Shown here: one piece after another, positions 1 to 57,430 of the stretch
How positions within the stretch are numbered: position 1 is the first letter of the stretch
Layout of the letters: each line of letters opens with the position of its first letter
Source: Acidobacteriota bacterium
GTDB lineage: Bacteria; Acidobacteriota; Vicinamibacteria; Vicinamibacterales; JAFNAJ01
DNA length: 64,000 nucleotides
NCBI GenBank assembly: GCA_023384575.1
Contig: JAHDVP010000004.1
Coordinates: 8,426 to 72,425, forward strand
Reading direction: 5' to 3'
Position numbers and translations under genes: made by a program
The notes under the pieces: generated by a model
Databases searched by the model: none
What the model was told of the DNA's origin: nothing
Seen by the model: only the letters and a program-made list of their open reading frames with translations

Positions 1-28
1 GGCTACAGGCTACAGGCTACAGGCGACA
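1..28. repeat. heptamer tandem repeat (GGCTACA)
   Basis: Three perfect copies of the 7-mer GGCTACA are followed by one variant, GGCGACA, and the array is cut by the window edge. It lies just past the stop codon of the first gene. A similar array (GGCTGCA twice, GGCTACA, GGCTACG) occurs at 24787-24814, and a one-and-a-half-unit trace in the opposite orientation lies near 14201. All are intergenic. Confidence 0.75.
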
Positions 29-1576: not shown

Positions 1577-1730
1577 GGCGTCCTCCTGCGCGAGTGGTCC
1601 GCTGACGTGTTCGTCGCTCAGCCCATGCTACACCCGCGCACGTGCCCCCGGCCGGCGATCGGCCTCGAAGACACGCTCGAGCTCGCGACCCGCGTCACGG
1701 TCCCGACTGCCAGGAGGATTCGCCGTGATG

Positions 1731-1825
1731 TCACCGATCACCGAGAAGACGGCGATCGTCATCGTACTGGCCGGCAGCCGCTGTCCGATAGCCGCAGGCC
1801 GAACGTCGGATTGGGCGCTAGCGCC
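1731..1825 (-). repeat. dispersed repeat, partial copy (5' part)
   Basis: Read on the minus strand, this segment shares a near-identical run (GCCGGCCAG, then ACGATGACGATCGCCGTC, then TTCTC and GTGATCGGT) with 7896-8024, together with the flanking CCCAATCC and TTCGGC blocks. It lacks the CTCACTGGGAGTGAG hairpin half. It begins with the palindrome GGCGCTAGCGCC and covers the stop codon of the diheme cytochrome gene. Confidence 0.7.
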
Positions 1826-2912
1826 GAGTCAGGGCGCGCGATGCCGGCCGCCCGGGGGCCAGGGCCTGAACGTCGTGCTCGACCCACGTCGTCAACAGGT
1901 CGATGGCCTCCTGATCGCGGACGACCGTGCCGAGCGGCGGCATCTGCGACGACGGCCGCCGCGAGTGCATGCGCACCAGGATGGCGCTCTGCTCGGGCGC
2001 GCTCGGATCGATGAGCACGCTCGTCCCGTCGGACCGGCCGGGAACCTGCCACTTCGTGGGTTGGCCGACGAGGCTCTGCGCCACGGCGTCGCCGTCCCGC
2101 AGCAGCGCGGGATAGCGCAGCGAGGGAATCGCGACCGAGAGGCTGTCGCTGCCGTCGTGGCACCCGCCGCAGTTGGCCGAGAGATAGCCGAGCACCGTGC
2201 GCGTCCGCGGATGGCTGGCGGCAATCCGGGGTGGGTGGTCGACGAGCCCAGGGGCCGCCGGCGAGAGGCGTCGCTCGTCGACCAGCGTCGCGAGCGTGAC
2301 CATGCCGGGCATCAACGGCTCCGCGTGAATGGCGTTCGGGTCGCGGTCGGTCGACAGCTGCAACGGGTTGAAGCCGAGCGGCGCCGTACGGCGTTCGCCG
2401 TGACAGGCCGCACAGTCGGCCCGCGACGGGATGCTGTGCCGCCGCCCCGGAGCCACCTCCGCGACGCCCCGCACGCCCTGCGGCGGCGCGAGCGTGGCGT
2501 CGGTGCCGTCCTCGTGCCAGACGTAGCTGCCCGCCACCCACCGCGAGGAGGACACCTTCCACAGCAGCCGCGTCTCGACCCTGCGGCCGTCGAAGGCGAA
2601 CTCCTTCCAGAACTTCGTGCCGGCGGGGAAGTCCCAGTCGTCCATGTTGGAGACGTCGATGGTCGTGCCCGGCGGCAGATACACCCATCGCGCTTTCGCG
2701 GCCCCATCGGTCCACAACGGGTACTGCGGCACGTACGGGCGGTTCTGGTCGGCGATGCCGTCCGGGCGCCCCGGGCCGTAGAGGCCGGTATCGACCAGCC
2801 GCTGCGGAAGCTCACCGGCGTCGGCCTCAGGACCGGTCGGCGTCCCCCCGGCCGCGACGATCGTGGCGACGACCGGGAGGGCGACGAGCCCGATGGCGAG
2901 GGCGCGTCTCAC
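1818..2912 (-). CDS. diheme c-type cytochrome, SO2930-like
   Basis: This is a 364-residue exported protein. The N-terminus has the signal-like stretch AIGLVALPVVATIVAAGG. Two CXXCH haem motifs are visible: CAACH near residue 183 and CGGCH near residue 262. A Met in SSQMPPLG could be a distal ligand. The architecture resembles the SO2930-family diheme cytochromes. The GTG at 2912 overlaps the TGA of the upstream cytochrome gene by 4 bp, so the two form a coupled operon, presumably for periplasmic electron transfer. The redox partner is unknown. The 3' end of the gene runs into a dispersed repeat. Confidence 0.8.
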   Translation of the reverse strand: MRRALAIGLVALPVVATIVAAGGTPTGPEADAGELPQRLVDTGLYGPGRPDGIADQNRPYVPQYPLWTDGAAKARWVYLPPGTTIDVSNMDDWDFPAGTKFWKEFAFDGRRVETRLLWKVSSSRWVAGSYVWHEDGTDATLAPPQGVRGVAEVAPGRRHSIPSRADCAACHGERRTAPLGFNPLQLSTDRDPNAIHAEPLMPGMVTLATLVDERRLSPAAPGLVDHPPRIAASHPRTRTVLGYLSANCGGCHDGSDSLSVAIPSLRYPALLRDGDAVAQSLVGQPTKWQVPGRSDGTSVLIDPSAPEQSAILVRMHSRRPSSQMPPLGTVVRDQEAIDLLTTWVEHDVQALAPGRPASRALTRR

Positions 2913-3496
2913 TGCTGCGACTCCGGCGGGTCGATGGGCGCCGGCACCCGGTTGCGCACCGGGGGGAGTGACTGCAGGTAGGCGAAGACCGCCCGCATGT
3001 CCTCGTCTGTCAGCGCCGCCACGCTGAAATAGGGCATGGGCGGCAACAGCGGACGTCCCTTGCCCTCGTGTCGTCCGGTCTTCATCGTGGCGATGAAGAT
3101 GTCCTCGGTCCAGAGCCCCAGGCCCGTCTCCGGGTCGGGCGTCAGATTCGCCGTGAAGCTCACGCCCCAGGGGCCGGCGAAGGCAGTGTTCGTTCCGGCC
3201 GCGCTCCAGACCCACGGCGCCTCGAGCCGCGCGGGCGGCGGCATGACGAGATCGGCCGGATGCCCCGTGAGCGCCCGCGACATGTCGGGTTCCGGCCCGT
3301 TCGGGCCTTCCTTCCAGGGCGTGTGGCAGTCGTGGCAGCTCATCGCGTTGACCAGGTACTCCCCGCGCTCCACCTGGGCCGCGCGTTCGCCGACCGCGCG
3401 TCCGACGTGCGGCGTGGTCGACACGGCGCGGGCCATGGCGCCGGCGAACAAGGACAGGGAGGCGGCGACGAGCAGCGTGGTCTTGGTGGTGGTCAT
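2909..3496 (-). CDS. monohaem c-type cytochrome
   Basis: This is a 195-residue protein with an N-terminal signal peptide (TTLLVAASLSLFAGAMARA). One haem-binding motif, CHDCH, lies near residue 54 in the context GEYLVNAMSCHDCHTPW. The C-terminal LPPMPYFSVAALTDEDMRAV and FAYLQSLPPV are typical of cytochromes that act as subunits of membrane dehydrogenases or as electron shuttles. It is the first gene of the two-cytochrome operon and is divergent from the PNPOx-like pair at 3642. The 145-bp intergenic region presumably carries both promoters. Confidence 0.85.
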   Translation of the reverse strand: MTTTKTTLLVAASLSLFAGAMARAVSTTPHVGRAVGERAAQVERGEYLVNAMSCHDCHTPWKEGPNGPEPDMSRALTGHPADLVMPPPARLEAPWVWSAAGTNTAFAGPWGVSFTANLTPDPETGLGLWTEDIFIATMKTGRHEGKGRPLLPPMPYFSVAALTDEDMRAVFAYLQSLPPVRNRVPAPIDPPESQQ

Positions 3497-7895: not shown

Positions 7896-8024
7896 CATTA
7901 GCCCCAATCCGGAATTCGGCTTGCGACTGCCGGCCAGCGTCCACCGGCCAGCACGATGACGATCGCCGTCTTCTCCGTGATCGGTACCCTCACTGGCAGT
8001 GACGCGAAGGCCAGTCGTTCAATC
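7896..8024 (+). repeat. dispersed repeat, longest copy
   Basis: This is the most complete copy of an unassigned intergenic repeat. In order it has CCCAATCC, TTCGGC, TGCCGGCCAGC, CCGGCCAGCACGATGACG, ATCGCCGTCTTCTC, GTGATCGGTACC, the hairpin CACTGGCAGTG, then GCGAAGGCCAGTCGT and CAATCC. The first half recurs at 1731-1825 (minus). The second half recurs at 14151-14194 (plus) and 54912-54959 (minus). It ends 13 bp before the end of the amidohydrolase gene. Confidence 0.8.
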
Positions 8025-8036
8025 CGACCCGGGCGT

Positions 8037-9299
8037 TCACAGACTGCCAACGACGACGACGCCGTTCGACATGACGACCAGCGGGTCGAACAGGACCGTC
8101 GTGTCTTCGATGGGGTCCCGCTCGAAGACGAGGAGGTCGGCCTCGAGGCCCGGCTGCACCGCCCCCGTGCGCGAGTCGATGCCGAGCACGCGGGCCCCCG
8201 AGGACGTGGCCGCCTCGATCGCCTCGAGGGGCGTGAACCCGCAATGCCGCACGAGCATCTCGATCTCGTGCGCGATGCGGATGCGCGCGGTGTCGTCGCC
8301 GTCGCCGTACGAGCCGTCGGTCGACGCGGCGACGACGATGCCGAGGGCCTTCGCCTTGCGCACGGCCTCCCTGAGCGGCGCCATCATGTGGTAGGTGCGC
8401 ACCTGCAGCGTGATGTCGTCGGCGCTGTTGCCGCGGGGGTCGCCGAGATCGCTCATCACCGCCAGCGTCGGCACGAAGAACGTGCGGCGCTTGCGCATCT
8501 CCGCCAGCGTGTCGTCGTCGACGTAGGTGCCGTGTTCGATGCTGCGCACGCCTGCACGCACGGCGGCCGCCGCGCCCTCGCGGGCGTGAGCGTGCGCCGC
8601 GACGAAGCGTCCAGCCGCGCGGGCCGTCTCGACCGCGGCGCGAATCTCGTCCTCGGTCAGTTCCGGCCGCCTGGGGTCGGTCGACGCGAGACCGGCGCGC
8701 TCGCTCGCACCGACCTTGATGACGTCGACGCCCCGGTCGATCATCGCCTGCACGACTGCCGCGATGGTCTCCGGGCCACGCAGCTCACCGTCGATCGTCG
8801 CGCCGAACTGCGGATAGGTCTGGTAGAAGGCGACGCCGGGACGGGGGCGGACGATGCTGCTCGCAACGAGCAGTTCGGGGCCCGGCACGTGACCCGCGCG
8901 GATCAGCTCGCGCGTGCCGAGCGCGCGCAGGTGCGCGTCACCGAGCACCCGGACCGTCGTCACGCCCGAAGCGAGCGCCCGGCGCGCGGCGTCGGGCGAG
9001 TCGAGGTGCGCGTGCGCGTCGATGAATCCCGGCAGGAGGTAGCGTCCGCTCAGATCGACGCGGCGGACCGCCGGGTCGACCGCCGGCAGCGTGGTGTCGA
9101 TGGCGTAGATCCTCCCGTCACGAATGCGAACGTGCACGCCGGCCCGTGGTGGCATCCCCGTGCCGTCGATGAGCGTGGCGTTGACGAGATCGAGGTTCTG
9201 CGCACCGGCGGACGAGGGCGCAACGAGCGCGGCGGCGAACGCCGCCGACGCGACGACGCGACGCAGCAGGGACCTGACGTTCCGGAAGGTGAGAGGCAT
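8037..9299 (-). CDS. secreted amidohydrolase-family protein
   Basis: This is a 420-residue protein with an export signal (VVASAAFAAALVAPSSAGAQ). The metal-dependent hydrolase fold is clear. The HxH metal motif is in LPGFIDAHAHLDSP. A lysine in VDVIKVGAS could be the carboxylated bridging residue. Histidines are in AAHAHAREG and IEHGTYV, and the catalytic aspartate is in ASTDGSYGD. The C-terminal ATSSGARVLGIDSRTGAV with EADLLVFERDP is typical of imidazolonepropionase-like or prolidase-like amidohydrolases. The precise substrate is unknown. The ATG at 9299 has a GGAAGGTGAGAGG stretch just upstream. Confidence 0.85.
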   Translation of the reverse strand: MPLTFRNVRSLLRRVVASAAFAAALVAPSSAGAQNLDLVNATLIDGTGMPPRAGVHVRIRDGRIYAIDTTLPAVDPAVRRVDLSGRYLLPGFIDAHAHLDSPDAARRALASGVTTVRVLGDAHLRALGTRELIRAGHVPGPELLVASSIVRPRPGVAFYQTYPQFGATIDGELRGPETIAAVVQAMIDRGVDVIKVGASERAGLASTDPRRPELTEDEIRAAVETARAAGRFVAAHAHAREGAAAAVRAGVRSIEHGTYVDDDTLAEMRKRRTFFVPTLAVMSDLGDPRGNSADDITLQVRTYHMMAPLREAVRKAKALGIVVAASTDGSYGDGDDTARIRIAHEIEMLVRHCGFTPLEAIEAATSSGARVLGIDSRTGAVQPGLEADLLVFERDPIEDTTVLFDPLVVMSNGVVVVGSL

Positions 9300-9410
9300 G
9301 ATGGCGGGCAGTATACCGCGCTGGCGCGAGTCCTCCGCCGCCTGTCGCCGTGTGTCCCGCCGCCCTGACCGACGACGGGGCGCCGGCGCGAATGGCCCTT
9401 CGGTCGCAGA

Positions 9411-9422
9411 TACACTACGGCC
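9411..9422 (+). promoter_or_regulatory. candidate -10 element close to a GTG start
   Basis: TACACT at 9411-9416 lies only six bases before the GTG at 9423. If it is a sigma-70 -10 box, transcription would begin at or next to the start codon, giving a leaderless mRNA. The -35 region is not recognisable. Confidence 0.35.
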
Positions 9423-10211
9423 GTGGAGTTCGTGCTGGTCCCGCTCGCCGCCTTCGTCGCCTCGGGCCTGACCATGTTCTCGGGGTTCGGGCTCGGGACG
9501 TTGTTGCTGCCGGTCTTCGCGCTGTTTGTCCCGATCGAGCTCGCGGTGGTGGCGACGGCCATCGTTCACGGCGCCAACAACGTCCTGAAGGCGTCGCTGC
9601 TCGGCCGGTGGGCCGACCGTGAGGTCGTCGTGCGCTTCGGCGTCCCCGCCGTTGGCGCCGCGCTGGTCGGCGCCTGGGTGCTCGCGACGTTCTCGGCGTT
9701 CGACCCCGTGGCGACCTACCCGCTCGGTGGACACACGGCGGTGGTCAGGCCGATCGGTCTGCTGATGGGGTGTGTGATGGCCGGCTTCGCCGGCATCGAG
9801 CTGCACCCTCGCTTCGACCGGCTCGAGTTCGACCGCCGTTACCTGCCGCTCGGTGGCGTGCTGTCGGGATTCTTCGGTGGTCTGTCAGGACATCAAGGCG
9901 CACTGCGTTCGGCGTTTCTCGCGAAGGTCGGGATCTCGCCGCAAGGCTTCGTCGGGACGAACGCCGTCATCGGGCTGCTCGTGGACCTGACGCGACTGTC
10001 CGTGTACGCGGCCCTGGTGACGGGCGGACGGTTCGCCGCGCTCGCGGGACCACGCGAGGTGTGGCTCATCGGTCTGGGCGCCTGCGCCGCCTTCGCCGGC
10101 GTGCTCGTCGGCAGGCGCCTGCTGCCGAAGGTCACGATGCGCGTCGTCCAGCGGCTGACGGGTGGGCTGCTGCTGCTCATCGCCGTGCTGCTCGGCGCCG
10201 GGCTGATCTGA
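9423..10211 (+). CDS. TauE/SafE-family membrane permease
   Basis: This is a 262-residue integral membrane protein with about eight hydrophobic segments. The two half-repeats, FSGFGLGTLLLPVFALFVP and LSGFFGGLSGHQGALRSAFL, carry the duplicated glycine-rich signature of sulfite-exporter TauE/SafE permeases. The family moves organic or inorganic sulfur anions, and the substrate here is not determinable. The start is GTG with a likely leaderless promoter. It stands alone between the amidohydrolase (divergent) and a small convergent gene. Confidence 0.8.
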   Translation: MEFVLVPLAAFVASGLTMFSGFGLGTLLLPVFALFVPIELAVVATAIVHGANNVLKASLLGRWADREVVVRFGVPAVGAALVGAWVLATFSAFDPVATYPLGGHTAVVRPIGLLMGCVMAGFAGIELHPRFDRLEFDRRYLPLGGVLSGFFGGLSGHQGALRSAFLAKVGISPQGFVGTNAVIGLLVDLTRLSVYAALVTGGRFAALAGPREVWLIGLGACAAFAGVLVGRRLLPKVTMRVVQRLTGGLLLLIAVLLGAGLI

Positions 10212-13933: not shown

Positions 13934-14150
13934 CGTCACACCTTAGGGCAAGGAAGGAACACGATCGACAGACCTTGGGTCCGACGCCTCCCTGGAAGCC
14001 TACCGCCAGCTTGTCGCATCCGTGTGACGGAGCGGTACCGCCGCCAGCCGAGGTCCGCCGCTTCGAGCCTTGGGTTCCCTGGGCGATGAGCCCTGAGCGA
14101 TGAGCCGCGCGATCGGTGACGGGAGCGAACTCGCGAGAACGTCGTCCCCT

Positions 14151-14194
14151 CCGTGAACGGGTACCTCACTGGGAGTGAGGCGAAGGCCAGTCGT
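14151..14194 (+). repeat. dispersed repeat, 3' part
   Basis: CCGTGAACGGGTACC, the perfect hairpin CTCACT-GGG-AGTGAG, then GCGAAGGCCAGTCGT match the second half of the repeat at 7896-8024. It lies in the roughly 300-bp gap between the alkaline phosphatase start and the mannosyltransferase end, 37 bp from the latter. An inverted GGCTACAGGCTG trace follows at once. I see no gene in the rest of this gap (13934-14230). Confidence 0.75.
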
Positions 14195-14230
14195 CAGCCT
14201 GTAGCCGCCAGCCAGATTGTCGGAACGGGG

Positions 14231-15436
14231 CTAATAGAGCGGGTGGATGTTCGTGAAGAGCGCCAGGCACAGCGCGTAGAGCACCGCGAACCCGAAGACG
14301 ACGTACGAGTGGGCGAGCGGCGACCGCACGGTGGACGCCAGCCAGATGAAGAAGGGGAAGAGCACGCTCGTGTACCGGCCGAGGCCGACGAGATGACCCG
14401 TCGACAGCGGAAGCGCCAGGTTGGCCAGCATGAACAGGCCGTACGCCGCGCCGAACCTGCGCCAGACGAACGGGACGGCCGAGAGGAACGACAGCGCGGC
14501 AAGGCCGTTGAGCGTGTCGTAGAGCGCGTGCGCTTCGTCCGTGAAGAACTCGTAGGGGCGCGAGACGAGCGACGCGACCAGTGCCGGCAGTGGGCCGAAC
14601 GAGGACGTGCCCGGCACGTAGTCCCATCGCATGATGGAGTGCTTCCACTCGATTGGCGAGCCGCTCAACGCGTAGTTGTAGGCGCACCACGCGCCGAATC
14701 CCCCGACGACCAGCGCGGCGGCGACCCAGCGGGAGGCGGGCGCCCGGCCACTGCGTCCGGTCTGCCAGAGGATCCAGACGAAGGCGGGCAGGGCCATGAT
14801 GCCGTTGACGCGCGTGCACACGGCGAGCGCGCCCGTCGCGCCGGCGAGCACCCACCGCTCGCGGCGCAGGGCGAGGAAGGTGGCCACCATCAGGCAGAGG
14901 AACAGGCTCTCCGAGTAGACGATGCCGTAGTAGAACGCGAAGGGGAAGACACCCGCGTAGAGCACGGCCCGTTCGGCGGCGTCCCGGTCGAGGTCGAGCC
15001 GCGCGAGCCGATAGAGCAACACGACCGCCACAGCGAAGGCCGCCCACGACACGGCGATGCCCGCGAAGTAGTAGTGCCGGGGCTTGGTGCCGAAGAGCGG
15101 GGCGACCGCGCGCATCGCGAGCGGATACGTGGGGAAGAACGCCAGGTTGCTGCGCCCGCCTTCGACGAACCGATAGCCGTCCTGGGCGATGCCACGATAC
15201 CAGCCCGAGTCGTACCGGGCGAAGGTGTCCCAGAAGGCGTGCGGCTGCGCCAGTACGCTGAAGGGCTCACGTTCGTAAGGCGGAAAGGCCAGGTTGGCCC
15301 AGAAGGCCACGAGTGCCGTCAGTAACCGGATGCCAAGGGCCAGCGCGACGAGGCGTGACACGACTCGCCACTCGCTCGGGGGTGGCTTCGCGGACGGGTC
15401 CGGACGCTCGACATCAGGGCGCTGGAGCTCATCCAT
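14231..15436 (-). CDS. PIG-V-like integral membrane mannosyltransferase
   Basis: This is a 401-residue protein with about ten hydrophobic segments after a 28-residue polar N-terminus. The loop WDTFARYDSGWYRGIAQDGY carries the D-S-x-W-Y pattern of PIG-V/GT76-like lipid-linked mannosyltransferases, and a further FPTYPLAMR motif follows. Members use polyprenyl-phosphate-linked sugars at the membrane. The donor and acceptor are not predictable here. It stands alone on the minus strand. The dispersed repeat is downstream of its stop. Confidence 0.75.
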   Translation of the reverse strand: MDELQRPDVERPDPSAKPPPSEWRVVSRLVALALGIRLLTALVAFWANLAFPPYEREPFSVLAQPHAFWDTFARYDSGWYRGIAQDGYRFVEGGRSNLAFFPTYPLAMRAVAPLFGTKPRHYYFAGIAVSWAAFAVAVVLLYRLARLDLDRDAAERAVLYAGVFPFAFYYGIVYSESLFLCLMVATFLALRRERWVLAGATGALAVCTRVNGIMALPAFVWILWQTGRSGRAPASRWVAAALVVGGFGAWCAYNYALSGSPIEWKHSIMRWDYVPGTSSFGPLPALVASLVSRPYEFFTDEAHALYDTLNGLAALSFLSAVPFVWRRFGAAYGLFMLANLALPLSTGHLVGLGRYTSVLFPFFIWLASTVRSPLAHSYVVFGFAVLYALCLALFTNIHPLY

Positions 15437-16886: not shown

Positions 16887-16900
16887 CGGATCAAGAGAGC

Positions 16901-16950
16901 GGGGTCAGGTCTTGAATCGTGAAGAATCCGCAGTTTCAAGACCTGACCCC
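16901..16950. repeat. REP/RAYT-type palindrome, family A
   Basis: A perfect 16-bp inverted repeat, GGGGTCAGGTCTTGAA and TTCAAGACCTGACCCC, is separated by an 18-nt loop. A second copy with one mismatch lies at 40519-40561. Palindromes of this sequence type are associated with REP-associated tyrosine transposases in many genomes, but no such transposase is in the window. Confidence 0.8.
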
Positions 16951-23654: not shown

Positions 23655-23717
23655 CTGCCGACCCACGCCCGAGGGGCTTCGGTTCTCGTCGGTGGCGCCC
23701 CGGTCCTCGTCCGTAGC

Positions 23718-23739
23718 GCGAGGGGCTTCAGCCCCTCGC
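23718..23739. repeat. GCTTCAGCCCC palindrome overlapping hypB stop
   Basis: A perfect 10-bp inverted repeat, GCGAGGGGCT-TC-AGCCCCTCGC, supplies the stop codon of hypB (23728-23730) and its last residues. Related palindromes occur at 41194-41216 and in the 46542-46662 cluster. Confidence 0.8.
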
Positions 23740-24405
23740 GGGATACCGCGACGCGCGTTGCTCTTCGAGCAACTCGATCCACGCGTCGAGGCCGGCTCCG
23801 GTCTTGGCCGAGGTCTCGATGATGGTGATGTCGGGACGCACGGCGCGAATGTTCGCGTGCGCGGCCCCACGGTCGAACTCGCAGGCGTCGGCGAGGTCGA
23901 TCTTCGTCACGATGGCCATGTCGGCCGAGTTGAACATCCCGGGATACTTCAGGGGCTTGTCCTCGCCCTCGGTGACCGAGAGCAGCACGACGCGCGCGGC
24001 CTCGCCGAGGTCGTAGCTCGACGGGCACACGAGGTTGCCGACGTTCTCGATGAACAGGAAGTCGAGGGCGGCGAGATTCCAGCCCTCGAGGTGCGCGCCG
24101 ATCATCTCGGCCTCGAGATGACAGCGCCCGTGCGTGTTGATCTGCCGTGCGGGCGCCCCGCACCGCGCCAGGCGCCGGGCGTCGTTCTCGGTCTCGAGGT
24201 CGCCGACGAGCGCGGCGACGCGGCGGCCGCGGCGGACGAACTCCGACAGCGTCCGTTCGAGGAACGCCGTCTTGCCACTGCCCGGGCTCGAGACGAGGTT
24301 CAGCGTCAACACGCCGGCGTCTTCGAACCGGCGCCGCAAACCAGCGGCAATCTCGTCGTTCTTGTTGAGAATGCCCTTCCGGACTTCGAGAATTCGCGTG
24401 GTCAT
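23728..24405 (-). CDS. hypB: hydrogenase nickel incorporation GTPase HypB
   Basis: This is a 225-residue GTPase for nickel insertion into NiFe hydrogenase. The P-loop is SSPGSGKT, a second G motif region is VGDLETENDA, and the base-recognition motif is VTKIDLAD. The internal metal site is in ARCGAPARQINTHGRCHLEA, with the conserved Cys and His. The N-terminal CxxCGC nickel site and His-rich stretch of some HypB proteins are absent. The last residues (YPARG) and the stop lie inside a REP palindrome. It overlaps hypA by 4 bp (ATGA). No hydrogenase genes are in the window. Confidence 0.92.
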   Translation of the reverse strand: MTTRILEVRKGILNKNDEIAAGLRRRFEDAGVLTLNLVSSPGSGKTAFLERTLSEFVRRGRRVAALVGDLETENDARRLARCGAPARQINTHGRCHLEAEMIGAHLEGWNLAALDFLFIENVGNLVCPSSYDLGEAARVVLLSVTEGEDKPLKYPGMFNSADMAIVTKIDLADACEFDRGAAHANIRAVRPDITIIETSAKTGAGLDAWIELLEEQRASRYPARG

Positions 24406-24786: not shown

Positions 24787-24843
24787 GGCTGCAGGCTGCA
24801 GGCTACAGGCTACGGGCCAAACCAACCACCAACCACCAACCAC
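24787..24843. repeat. two adjacent heptamer tandem repeats
   Basis: 24787-24814 holds GGCTGCA twice, then GGCTACA and GGCTACG. From 24821 a second heptamer, ACCAACC, is repeated three times. Both fill the short gap between the hypA start and the end of the DUF4139 gene. The first array is the same type as at window position 1. Confidence 0.7.
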
Positions 24844-40518: not shown

Positions 40519-40561
40519 GGGGTCAGGTCGTGAAAAACGCCACACTTCAAGACCTGACCCC
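40519..40561. repeat. REP/RAYT-type palindrome, family A copy 2
   Basis: Arms GGGGTCAGGTCGTGAA and TTCAAGACCTGACCCC differ at one pair and enclose an 11-nt loop. They match the palindrome at 16901-16950. The copy fills most of the gap between the TM2 gene and the next gene; an ATG inside it (40530) is in frame with that gene but is unlikely to be the start. Confidence 0.8.
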
Positions 40562-40577
40562 GGCTACACTGCTGGCC

Positions 40578-46503: not shown

Positions 46504-46541
46504 GATGCTCGTACGGCAGGCGAAGCCTCCGGCCTCGCCCG

Positions 46542-46662
46542 CGAGGATCTGAAGCCCCTCGCGCTACGGACGAAGATCGGGATCGCGTGGTGTCCGTAGC
46601 GCCGGGGCCTCAACATCGGCGGCGGAATCGAGGTCGTAGCGTCGGGGCTGCAGCCCCGGCGG
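46542..46662. repeat. cluster of GCTTCAGCCCC-type palindromes
   Basis: Three degenerate members occupy this gap. The first, in reverse orientation, is centred near 46555 (GATCTGAAGCCCCTCGCGC). The second is GTAGCGCCGGGGCCTCAAC at 46597. The third is GTAGCGTCGGGGCTGCAGCC at 46636. No gene is seen between the terminator and the transferase at 46669. Confidence 0.65.
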
Positions 46663-51701: not shown

Positions 51702-51734
51702 GGGAAAAGGGGACACTCATCTTTTTCGATCGTC
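51702..51734 (+). repeat. REP/RAYT-type element, family B
   Basis: GGGAAAAGGGGACACTCATC followed by TTTTTCGATCG is matched in reverse orientation at 57401-57430. The GAAAAG and CTTTTTC ends can pair. The sequence resembles palindromes associated with REP-associated tyrosine transposases. It lies between the DtxR and PadR genes. Confidence 0.7.
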
Positions 51735-51830
51735 GCCCCCCCGACACTGCTTAGCCACGCCTTTCCCCTTGCGTTCCGATGGGAAGAGTGTCAGAGTCGG
51801 CACTCCGATCGAAACGCGATGGGAGATCGC

Positions 51831-54824: not shown

Positions 54825-54911
54825 CGGCAGGAGGACAACCGTGCCGGGCATGGGCCCTCGATTGATGTGACAACCCCGGCTGGCGACTGGCGGCCTGGTC
54901 GGAGAAATCAG

Positions 54912-54959
54912 CGATTGGACGACTGGCCTTCGCTTTACTCCCAGTGAGGTCACCGATCA
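54912..54959 (-). repeat. dispersed repeat, 3' part, reverse copy
   Basis: Read on the minus strand, TGATCGGTGACC, CTCACTGGGAGTAAAG, then GCGAAGGCCAGTCGTCCAATC match the second half of the 7896-8024 repeat. It lies in the convergent gap between the ADOP and norZ genes, about 90 bp from each. Confidence 0.75.
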
Positions 54960-54976
54960 GGGAGAGGCGAAGAGAA

Positions 54977-57387: not shown

Positions 57388-57400
57388 GACGGTTCTCCGA

Positions 57401-57430
57401 CGATCCGAAAAGATGAGTGTCCCCTTTTCC
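57401..57430 (-). repeat. REP/RAYT-type element, family B copy 2
   Basis: CGATCCGAAAAGATGAGTGT followed by CCCCTTTTCC is the reverse complement of the element at 51702. It fills most of the gap between the norZ start and the ric stop. Confidence 0.7.

What the first reader, a model, noticed from the sequence alone, without database searches (positions are those of the whole stretch)
7896..8024. Unassigned dispersed intergenic repeat in four places
Four intergenic sites share parts of one sequence of up to about 130 bp: 1731-1825 (minus, first half), 7896-8024 (plus, both halves), 14151-14194 (plus, second half) and 54912-54959 (minus, second half). The second half contains the hairpin CTCACT-GGG-AGTGAG or CACTGGCAGTG, followed by GCGAAGGCCAGTCGT. 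The hairpin bases vary in a way that keeps pairing in two copies. Each copy lies near a gene's 3' end, one of them covering a stop codon. No transposase accompanies them. They could be a MITE-like element, a terminator or attenuator family, or a small RNA.
Basis: partly seen in the sequence, partly recalled or inferred. Interest (0 to 1): 0.68.

Follow-up and report, generated by a model that had tools for sequence, protein, structure and literature searches.

The report
Decayed miniature transposon family (MITE)
The four repeats are worn fragments of one small, gene-free jumping element about 189 bp long that sits at about 118 places between genes in this bacterium; it is a new family of a well-known kind of mobile DNA, and the enzyme that moved it was not found.

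Summary
The repeat is real, but the unit is not the ~130-bp element described. All four window sites are fragments of one ~189-bp element. A profile of the element and its sister families finds 118 distinct places in the 5.9-Mb genome after removing 23 opposite-strand doubles.
Full copies read YTRR-CCCCAATCCGACATTCGGCTTGCG...CTCACTGGSAGTGA...CGCCAGCCAGATTGTCGGATCAGGG-YTRR. The ends are imperfect inverted repeats, the strand folds back on itself, and a 4-bp direct repeat flanks it (62.5% identity vs 43.2% in shuffles, 5 sd). One copy lies inside a 43-bp repeat whose other copies are gap-free empty sites. That is insertion with a 4-bp target duplication: a MITE.
No compensatory pairing within the family and no bias to gene 3' ends, so terminator, attenuator or small RNA are not supported. 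Overlap with stop codons partly follows from the YTRR target, with a modest excess (7 of about 31; 7.5% expected). Relatives occur in another family of the order; copies in a supposed second genus are a mis-binned contig. No transposase with matching ends was found. New member of a known kind.

The parts
1723..1820 (-). Left-half fragment of the element (consensus positions 2-98); its left flank CTAG at 1818-1821 contains the TAG stop codon (1818-1820) of the minus-strand ORF 1818-3215 (weak cytochrome c match)
7898..8024 (+). Largest window copy (consensus 1-127), right third lost; left flank TTAG at 7898-7901; between a HAD hydrolase gene and the 3' end of an amidohydrolase gene (8037-9806 minus)
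14137..14234 (+). Right part of the element (consensus 64-121 joined to 150-197, internal deletion); right flank CTAA at 14231-14234 overlaps the TAG stop codon of the minus-strand gene 14231-15436 (mannosyltransferase-like)
54876..54967 (-). Middle-right fragment (consensus 73-164), both ends lost; between the convergent 3' ends of a MacB/FtsX permease gene and a nitric oxide reductase-like gene
7991..8002 (+).

Best explanation
[quoted passage not shown] Shown: a multi-copy intergenic unit with fixed ends; imperfect terminal inverted repeats; a near-palindromic strand; a 4-bp direct duplication of a YTRR-like target; one reconstructed empty site. Inferred: a DDE-type transposase acting in trans recognised the terminal repeats, moved the element into 4-bp staggered cuts at YTRR, and repair duplicated the 4 bp. 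The partner is now absent, diverged or unassembled. The copies then decayed by point mutation and deletion; the four window copies are such remnants and most likely do nothing at their present sites.
For: Whole-genome census, 141 matches = 118 places; fixed ends and inverted repeats; 4-bp flanking direct repeat, 62.5% vs 43.2 +/- 3.8% in shuffles, 0 of 20,000 as high, other lengths negative; sister family 2 also shows identical 4-mers (ATAG/ATAG in L166, TTCA/TTCA in L150); copy L013 inserted in a 43-bp repeat with gap-free empty paralogues; graded divergence, best pair 98.4%, median 83%; fold-back z = -4.8; intergenic without orientation bias.
Against: No transposase with matching ends was found. 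Many copies have imperfect target duplications. No close relative with an orthologous empty site is held.
Confidence: 0.87

Rival explanations
1. A REP/REPIN-type palindromic repeat moved by a single-strand HUH (Y1) transposase (RAYT, or the type flanked by long terminal repeats).
For: High copy, palindromic, intergenic; the genome has one Y1_Tnp gene.
Against: That gene is flanked by unrelated repeats (GGGGACACTCATCTTT...) and the element is not next to it. The element is ~189 bp with duplicated, variable target bases, whereas REPs are 20-40 bp with a constant GTAG or CGTC tag (PMC3733652).
Confidence: 0.06
2. A terminator, attenuator or other RNA element that acts at gene 3' ends.
For: Stable fold of the whole strand; window copies lie near 3' ends; 7 of about 31 insertions overlap stop codons.
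Against: 10 of 43 copies lie between divergent genes; no T-run; no compensatory changes within the family; across families the number of doubly changed pairs is not above shuffles, though the covariation score is; no Rfam match; most copies decay freely.
Confidence: 0.04
3. The element is mobile in origin, but its conserved centre (TCACTGGSAGTGAAGCGAAGG) has been kept for a host function such as protein binding.
For: The centre is among the best conserved parts within family 1 and is shared by sister families and by G033 elements that differ elsewhere.
Against: Common descent plus a role in transposition explains it equally well; fragments, two of the window copies included, have lost or mutated it.
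Confidence: 0.1

Closest known systems
Bacterial MITEs (Correia/NEMIS, RUP, ERIC; review PMC2229807, and PMC10969869)
   Same: About 100-200 bp, no protein, terminal inverted repeats, target duplication, fold-back transcript, about 30-700 copies for ERIC, mostly intergenic
   Different: Sequence unrelated to any found in my searches; GC-rich (most bacterial MITEs are described as A+T-rich with TA at the ends); 4-bp YTRR target; no partner insertion sequence identified
REP / REPIN repeats and RAYTs (PMC3733652, PMC2817692)
   Same: Palindromic, high copy, intergenic
   Different: 189 bp rather than 20-40 bp; no constant GTAG/CGTC tag; duplicated target; not linked to the genome's only Y1 transposase gene
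IS5- and IS701-type insertion sequences with 4-bp YTAR/YTAG targets (from memory, a lead only)
   Same: Target length and motif resemble YTRR
   Different: PF01609, PF13359 and PF13546 transposases not found intact in this genome; end sequences not compared with an IS collection

Membership tests
Bacterial MITE | Short multi-copy unit with fixed ends | tested here: met
   ~189 bp, 118 places
Bacterial MITE | Terminal inverted repeats | tested here: met
   imperfect, about 13-40 bp
Bacterial MITE | Target-site duplication | tested here: met
   4 bp, 5 sd above shuffles; empty site
Bacterial MITE | No conserved protein-coding frame | tested here: met
   open stretch broken by indels, by inspection of the alignment
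Bacterial MITE | Partner transposase with matching ends | tested here: inconclusive
   none found in a 112-contig assembly
REP/REPIN-RAYT | 20-40 bp palindrome with constant GTAG or CGTC tag | tested here: not met
   189 bp, flank YTRR variable and duplicated
REP/REPIN-RAYT | Y1 transposase gene flanked by the repeat | tested here: not met
   single Y1_Tnp gene has other flanks
Intrinsic terminator / attenuator | Hairpin followed by T-run, downstream of genes | tested here: not met
   no T-run in the consensus sequence; no orientation bias
Structured small RNA | Compensatory base changes | tested here: not met
   0 of 29 pairs in family 1; across families ambiguous
Structured small RNA | Discrete transcript | not testable with these tools
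   no RNA-seq available

The most novel reading that the evidence does not exclude
An order-wide lineage of GC-rich fold-back elements in this bacterial order, with a conserved central motif and a stop-codon-shaped YTRR target that lets it land at gene ends with little harm, moved by a transposase of an undescribed kind, which would explain why no known transposase with matching ends was found.
Probability: 0.1. Interest if true: 0.55.

Novelty: new member of a known kind. Interest (0 to 1): 0.3.

Why it matters
It explains an unassigned repeat and gives ends, target motif and a profile with which the family can be masked or tracked in related genomes. It adds a GC-rich MITE family in a bacterial group for which my literature searches found none described. 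If the YTRR target really favours stop codons, it is a simple example of a mobile element landing at gene ends with little damage.

Tried and rejected
Second-genus occurrence: the G003 copies lie on a contig 99.96% identical over 54 kb to the window's genome, so it is a mis-binned contig, not a second host.
Autonomous partner: terminal-repeat weight matrix over 2 Mb, end pattern over the whole genome, and six transposase families. The weak PF01609 hit on C56 lies among efflux-type ORFs and looks spurious. The weak PF13751 hit is a frame-broken ISNCY-family element on C90 whose ends (TTCTTCACCGGAAAGTAGTTAG) are unrelated.
World-wide distribution: an exact end pattern over GTDB contigs gave 9 stretches: the Vicinamibacteraceae MAG contig (= G003) and eight scattered single matches in other taxa, probably chance; the window's own genome is left out of that search.
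A coding frame (MTIAVFSVIG...) inside the element: broken by indels and not changing mainly at third positions (inspection).
Integron attC site: considered only; the flank is variable and duplicated; not tested further.
A second empty site (L025) is off by 2 bases and was not counted.

Full report
Observation. The four sites are related well beyond chance: nhmmer gives 8.6e-38, 1.3e-24, 2.5e-23 and 1.3e-16, while 20 Markov-shuffled windows and the reversed window give at most 7.6 bits. The unit was under-called. A search of the window's own genome with 7896-8024 gave 41 matches, 40 of them strong; their alignment shows a unit of about 189 bp. The 7898-8024 copy stops at consensus position 127, and the other three are fragments as well. 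A profile built from 27 sequences, family 2 and one G033 element included, gives 141 matches in the whole genome, 118 distinct places after I removed by hand 23 opposite-strand doubles of the self-complementary element. In about 2.04 Mb read as stretches there are 45 matches to the family 1 profile, 22 of them full length.

Anatomy. The left end reads CCCCAATCCGACATTCGGCTTGCGAC and the right end, on the other strand, CCCTGATCCGACAATCTGGCTGGCGGCTACAGGC: imperfect inverted repeats. The whole strand folds back (z = -4.8; single copies). Copies fall into subfamilies with different right ends (TGTCGGATCAGGG, TGTCACTTCGGGG, TGTCACATTGGGG). A sister family 2 shares ends and centre but little else. 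Some places hold a family 1 and a family 2 element side by side.

Insertion. The four bases on each side are a direct repeat: 62.5% identity within copies against 43.2 +/- 3.8% when left and right flanks are shuffled between copies, none of 20,000 shuffles as high; lengths 2, 3, 5, 6, 8 and 9 show nothing. The ends were set by fixed offsets from conserved motifs, so a few copies with end indels are scored low. The target is mostly C/T, T, A/G, A/G (the 4-mers were curated by eye). Independent evidence comes from the copy on C15 (L013): it sits inside a 43-bp repeat found elsewhere without it, and its joined flanks with one copy of the 4-mer match the empty repeats without a gap (88% to C9:13944-13986, 81-84% to others).

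Genes. Copies lie almost always between genes: 23 tandem, 10 divergent, 10 convergent, as expected from intergenic length (p = 0.31). The flanking 4-mer overlaps a stop codon in 7 of about 31 insertions. The target motif predicts 7.5%, position alone 2.5%, so there is about a three-fold excess, p about 0.007. Two of the seven are in the window (stops at 1818 and 14231). Gene calls come from a simple codon-usage finder of my own, checked by Pfam at the window sites, where it mis-called one gene: the amidohydrolase 8037-9806 on the minus strand is real, the overlapping plus-strand ORF has no match.

RNA reading. No compensatory change in family 1 (0 of 29 pairs). Across families four pairs change on both sides, no more than in shuffles (4.7), although the covariation score exceeds all shuffles, which a split between two families can produce alone. 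No Rfam match.

Relatives. Of 162 genomes of the order 25 have a match at E <= 0.01. G033, in another family, has clear relatives (best 7e-28, several copies) with YTNR-like flanks; weaker matches occur in its genus and elsewhere. The copies in G003 (MAG Vicinamibacteraceae bacterium isolate ACI2) are on a contig 99.96% identical to the window's genome: contamination.

Mobiliser. Not found. The only Y1 transposase gene has other flanks. Six DDE-type transposase profiles gave nothing intact; the one real but frame-broken ISNCY element has unrelated ends. The assembly has 112 contigs, so a multi-copy insertion sequence could be missing from it.

Conclusion. Shown: family, ends, inverted repeats, target duplication, one empty site, census. 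Inferred: DDE transposase in trans, past bursts, present decay. All testable defining features of a MITE are met except the partner, which is inconclusive. Ordinary in kind, new as a family as far as my searches reach.

Noticed in passing
window 16900-16950 and 40528-40562: Parts of a 43-bp palindromic repeat GGGGTCAGGTCTTGAA...TTCAAGACCTGACCCC, about 18 copies in 2 Mb of this genome; one copy carries an inserted element of the finding.
   Followed up: partly
window 51703-51735 and 57398-57430: Inverted pair GGAAAAGGGGACACTCATCTTTTTC; the same ends flank the genome's only Y1 transposase gene (C28:63586, L177), so these look like solo ends of that element.
   Followed up: partly
window 23699-23742 and 46538-46581: 44-nt repeat around GCGAGGGGCTTCAGCCCCTCGCG; similar short repeats GAGGGGCTGAAGCCCCTCGCGCTACGG occur at several places in the genome.
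   Followed up: no
window 1-24 and 24787-24824: 7-bp tandem arrays GGCTACAGGCTACAGG; the same 7-mers occur in the right arm of the element and as arrays in other genomes of the order.
   Followed up: no
L151-L153 (G003:C57): A 54-kb contig of MAG ACI2 is 99.96% identical to contig C7 of the window's genome: mis-binned.
   Followed up: yes
L061 11415-11802, L084 16243-16628, L150 18869-19276: Family 1 and family 2 elements lie side by side, separated by 4 to about 14 bases; cause not worked out.
   Followed up: no
L223 2398-4405: Frame-broken ISNCY-family insertion sequence next to a phage-type integrase gene, the only DDE transposase remnant identified.
   Followed up: partly
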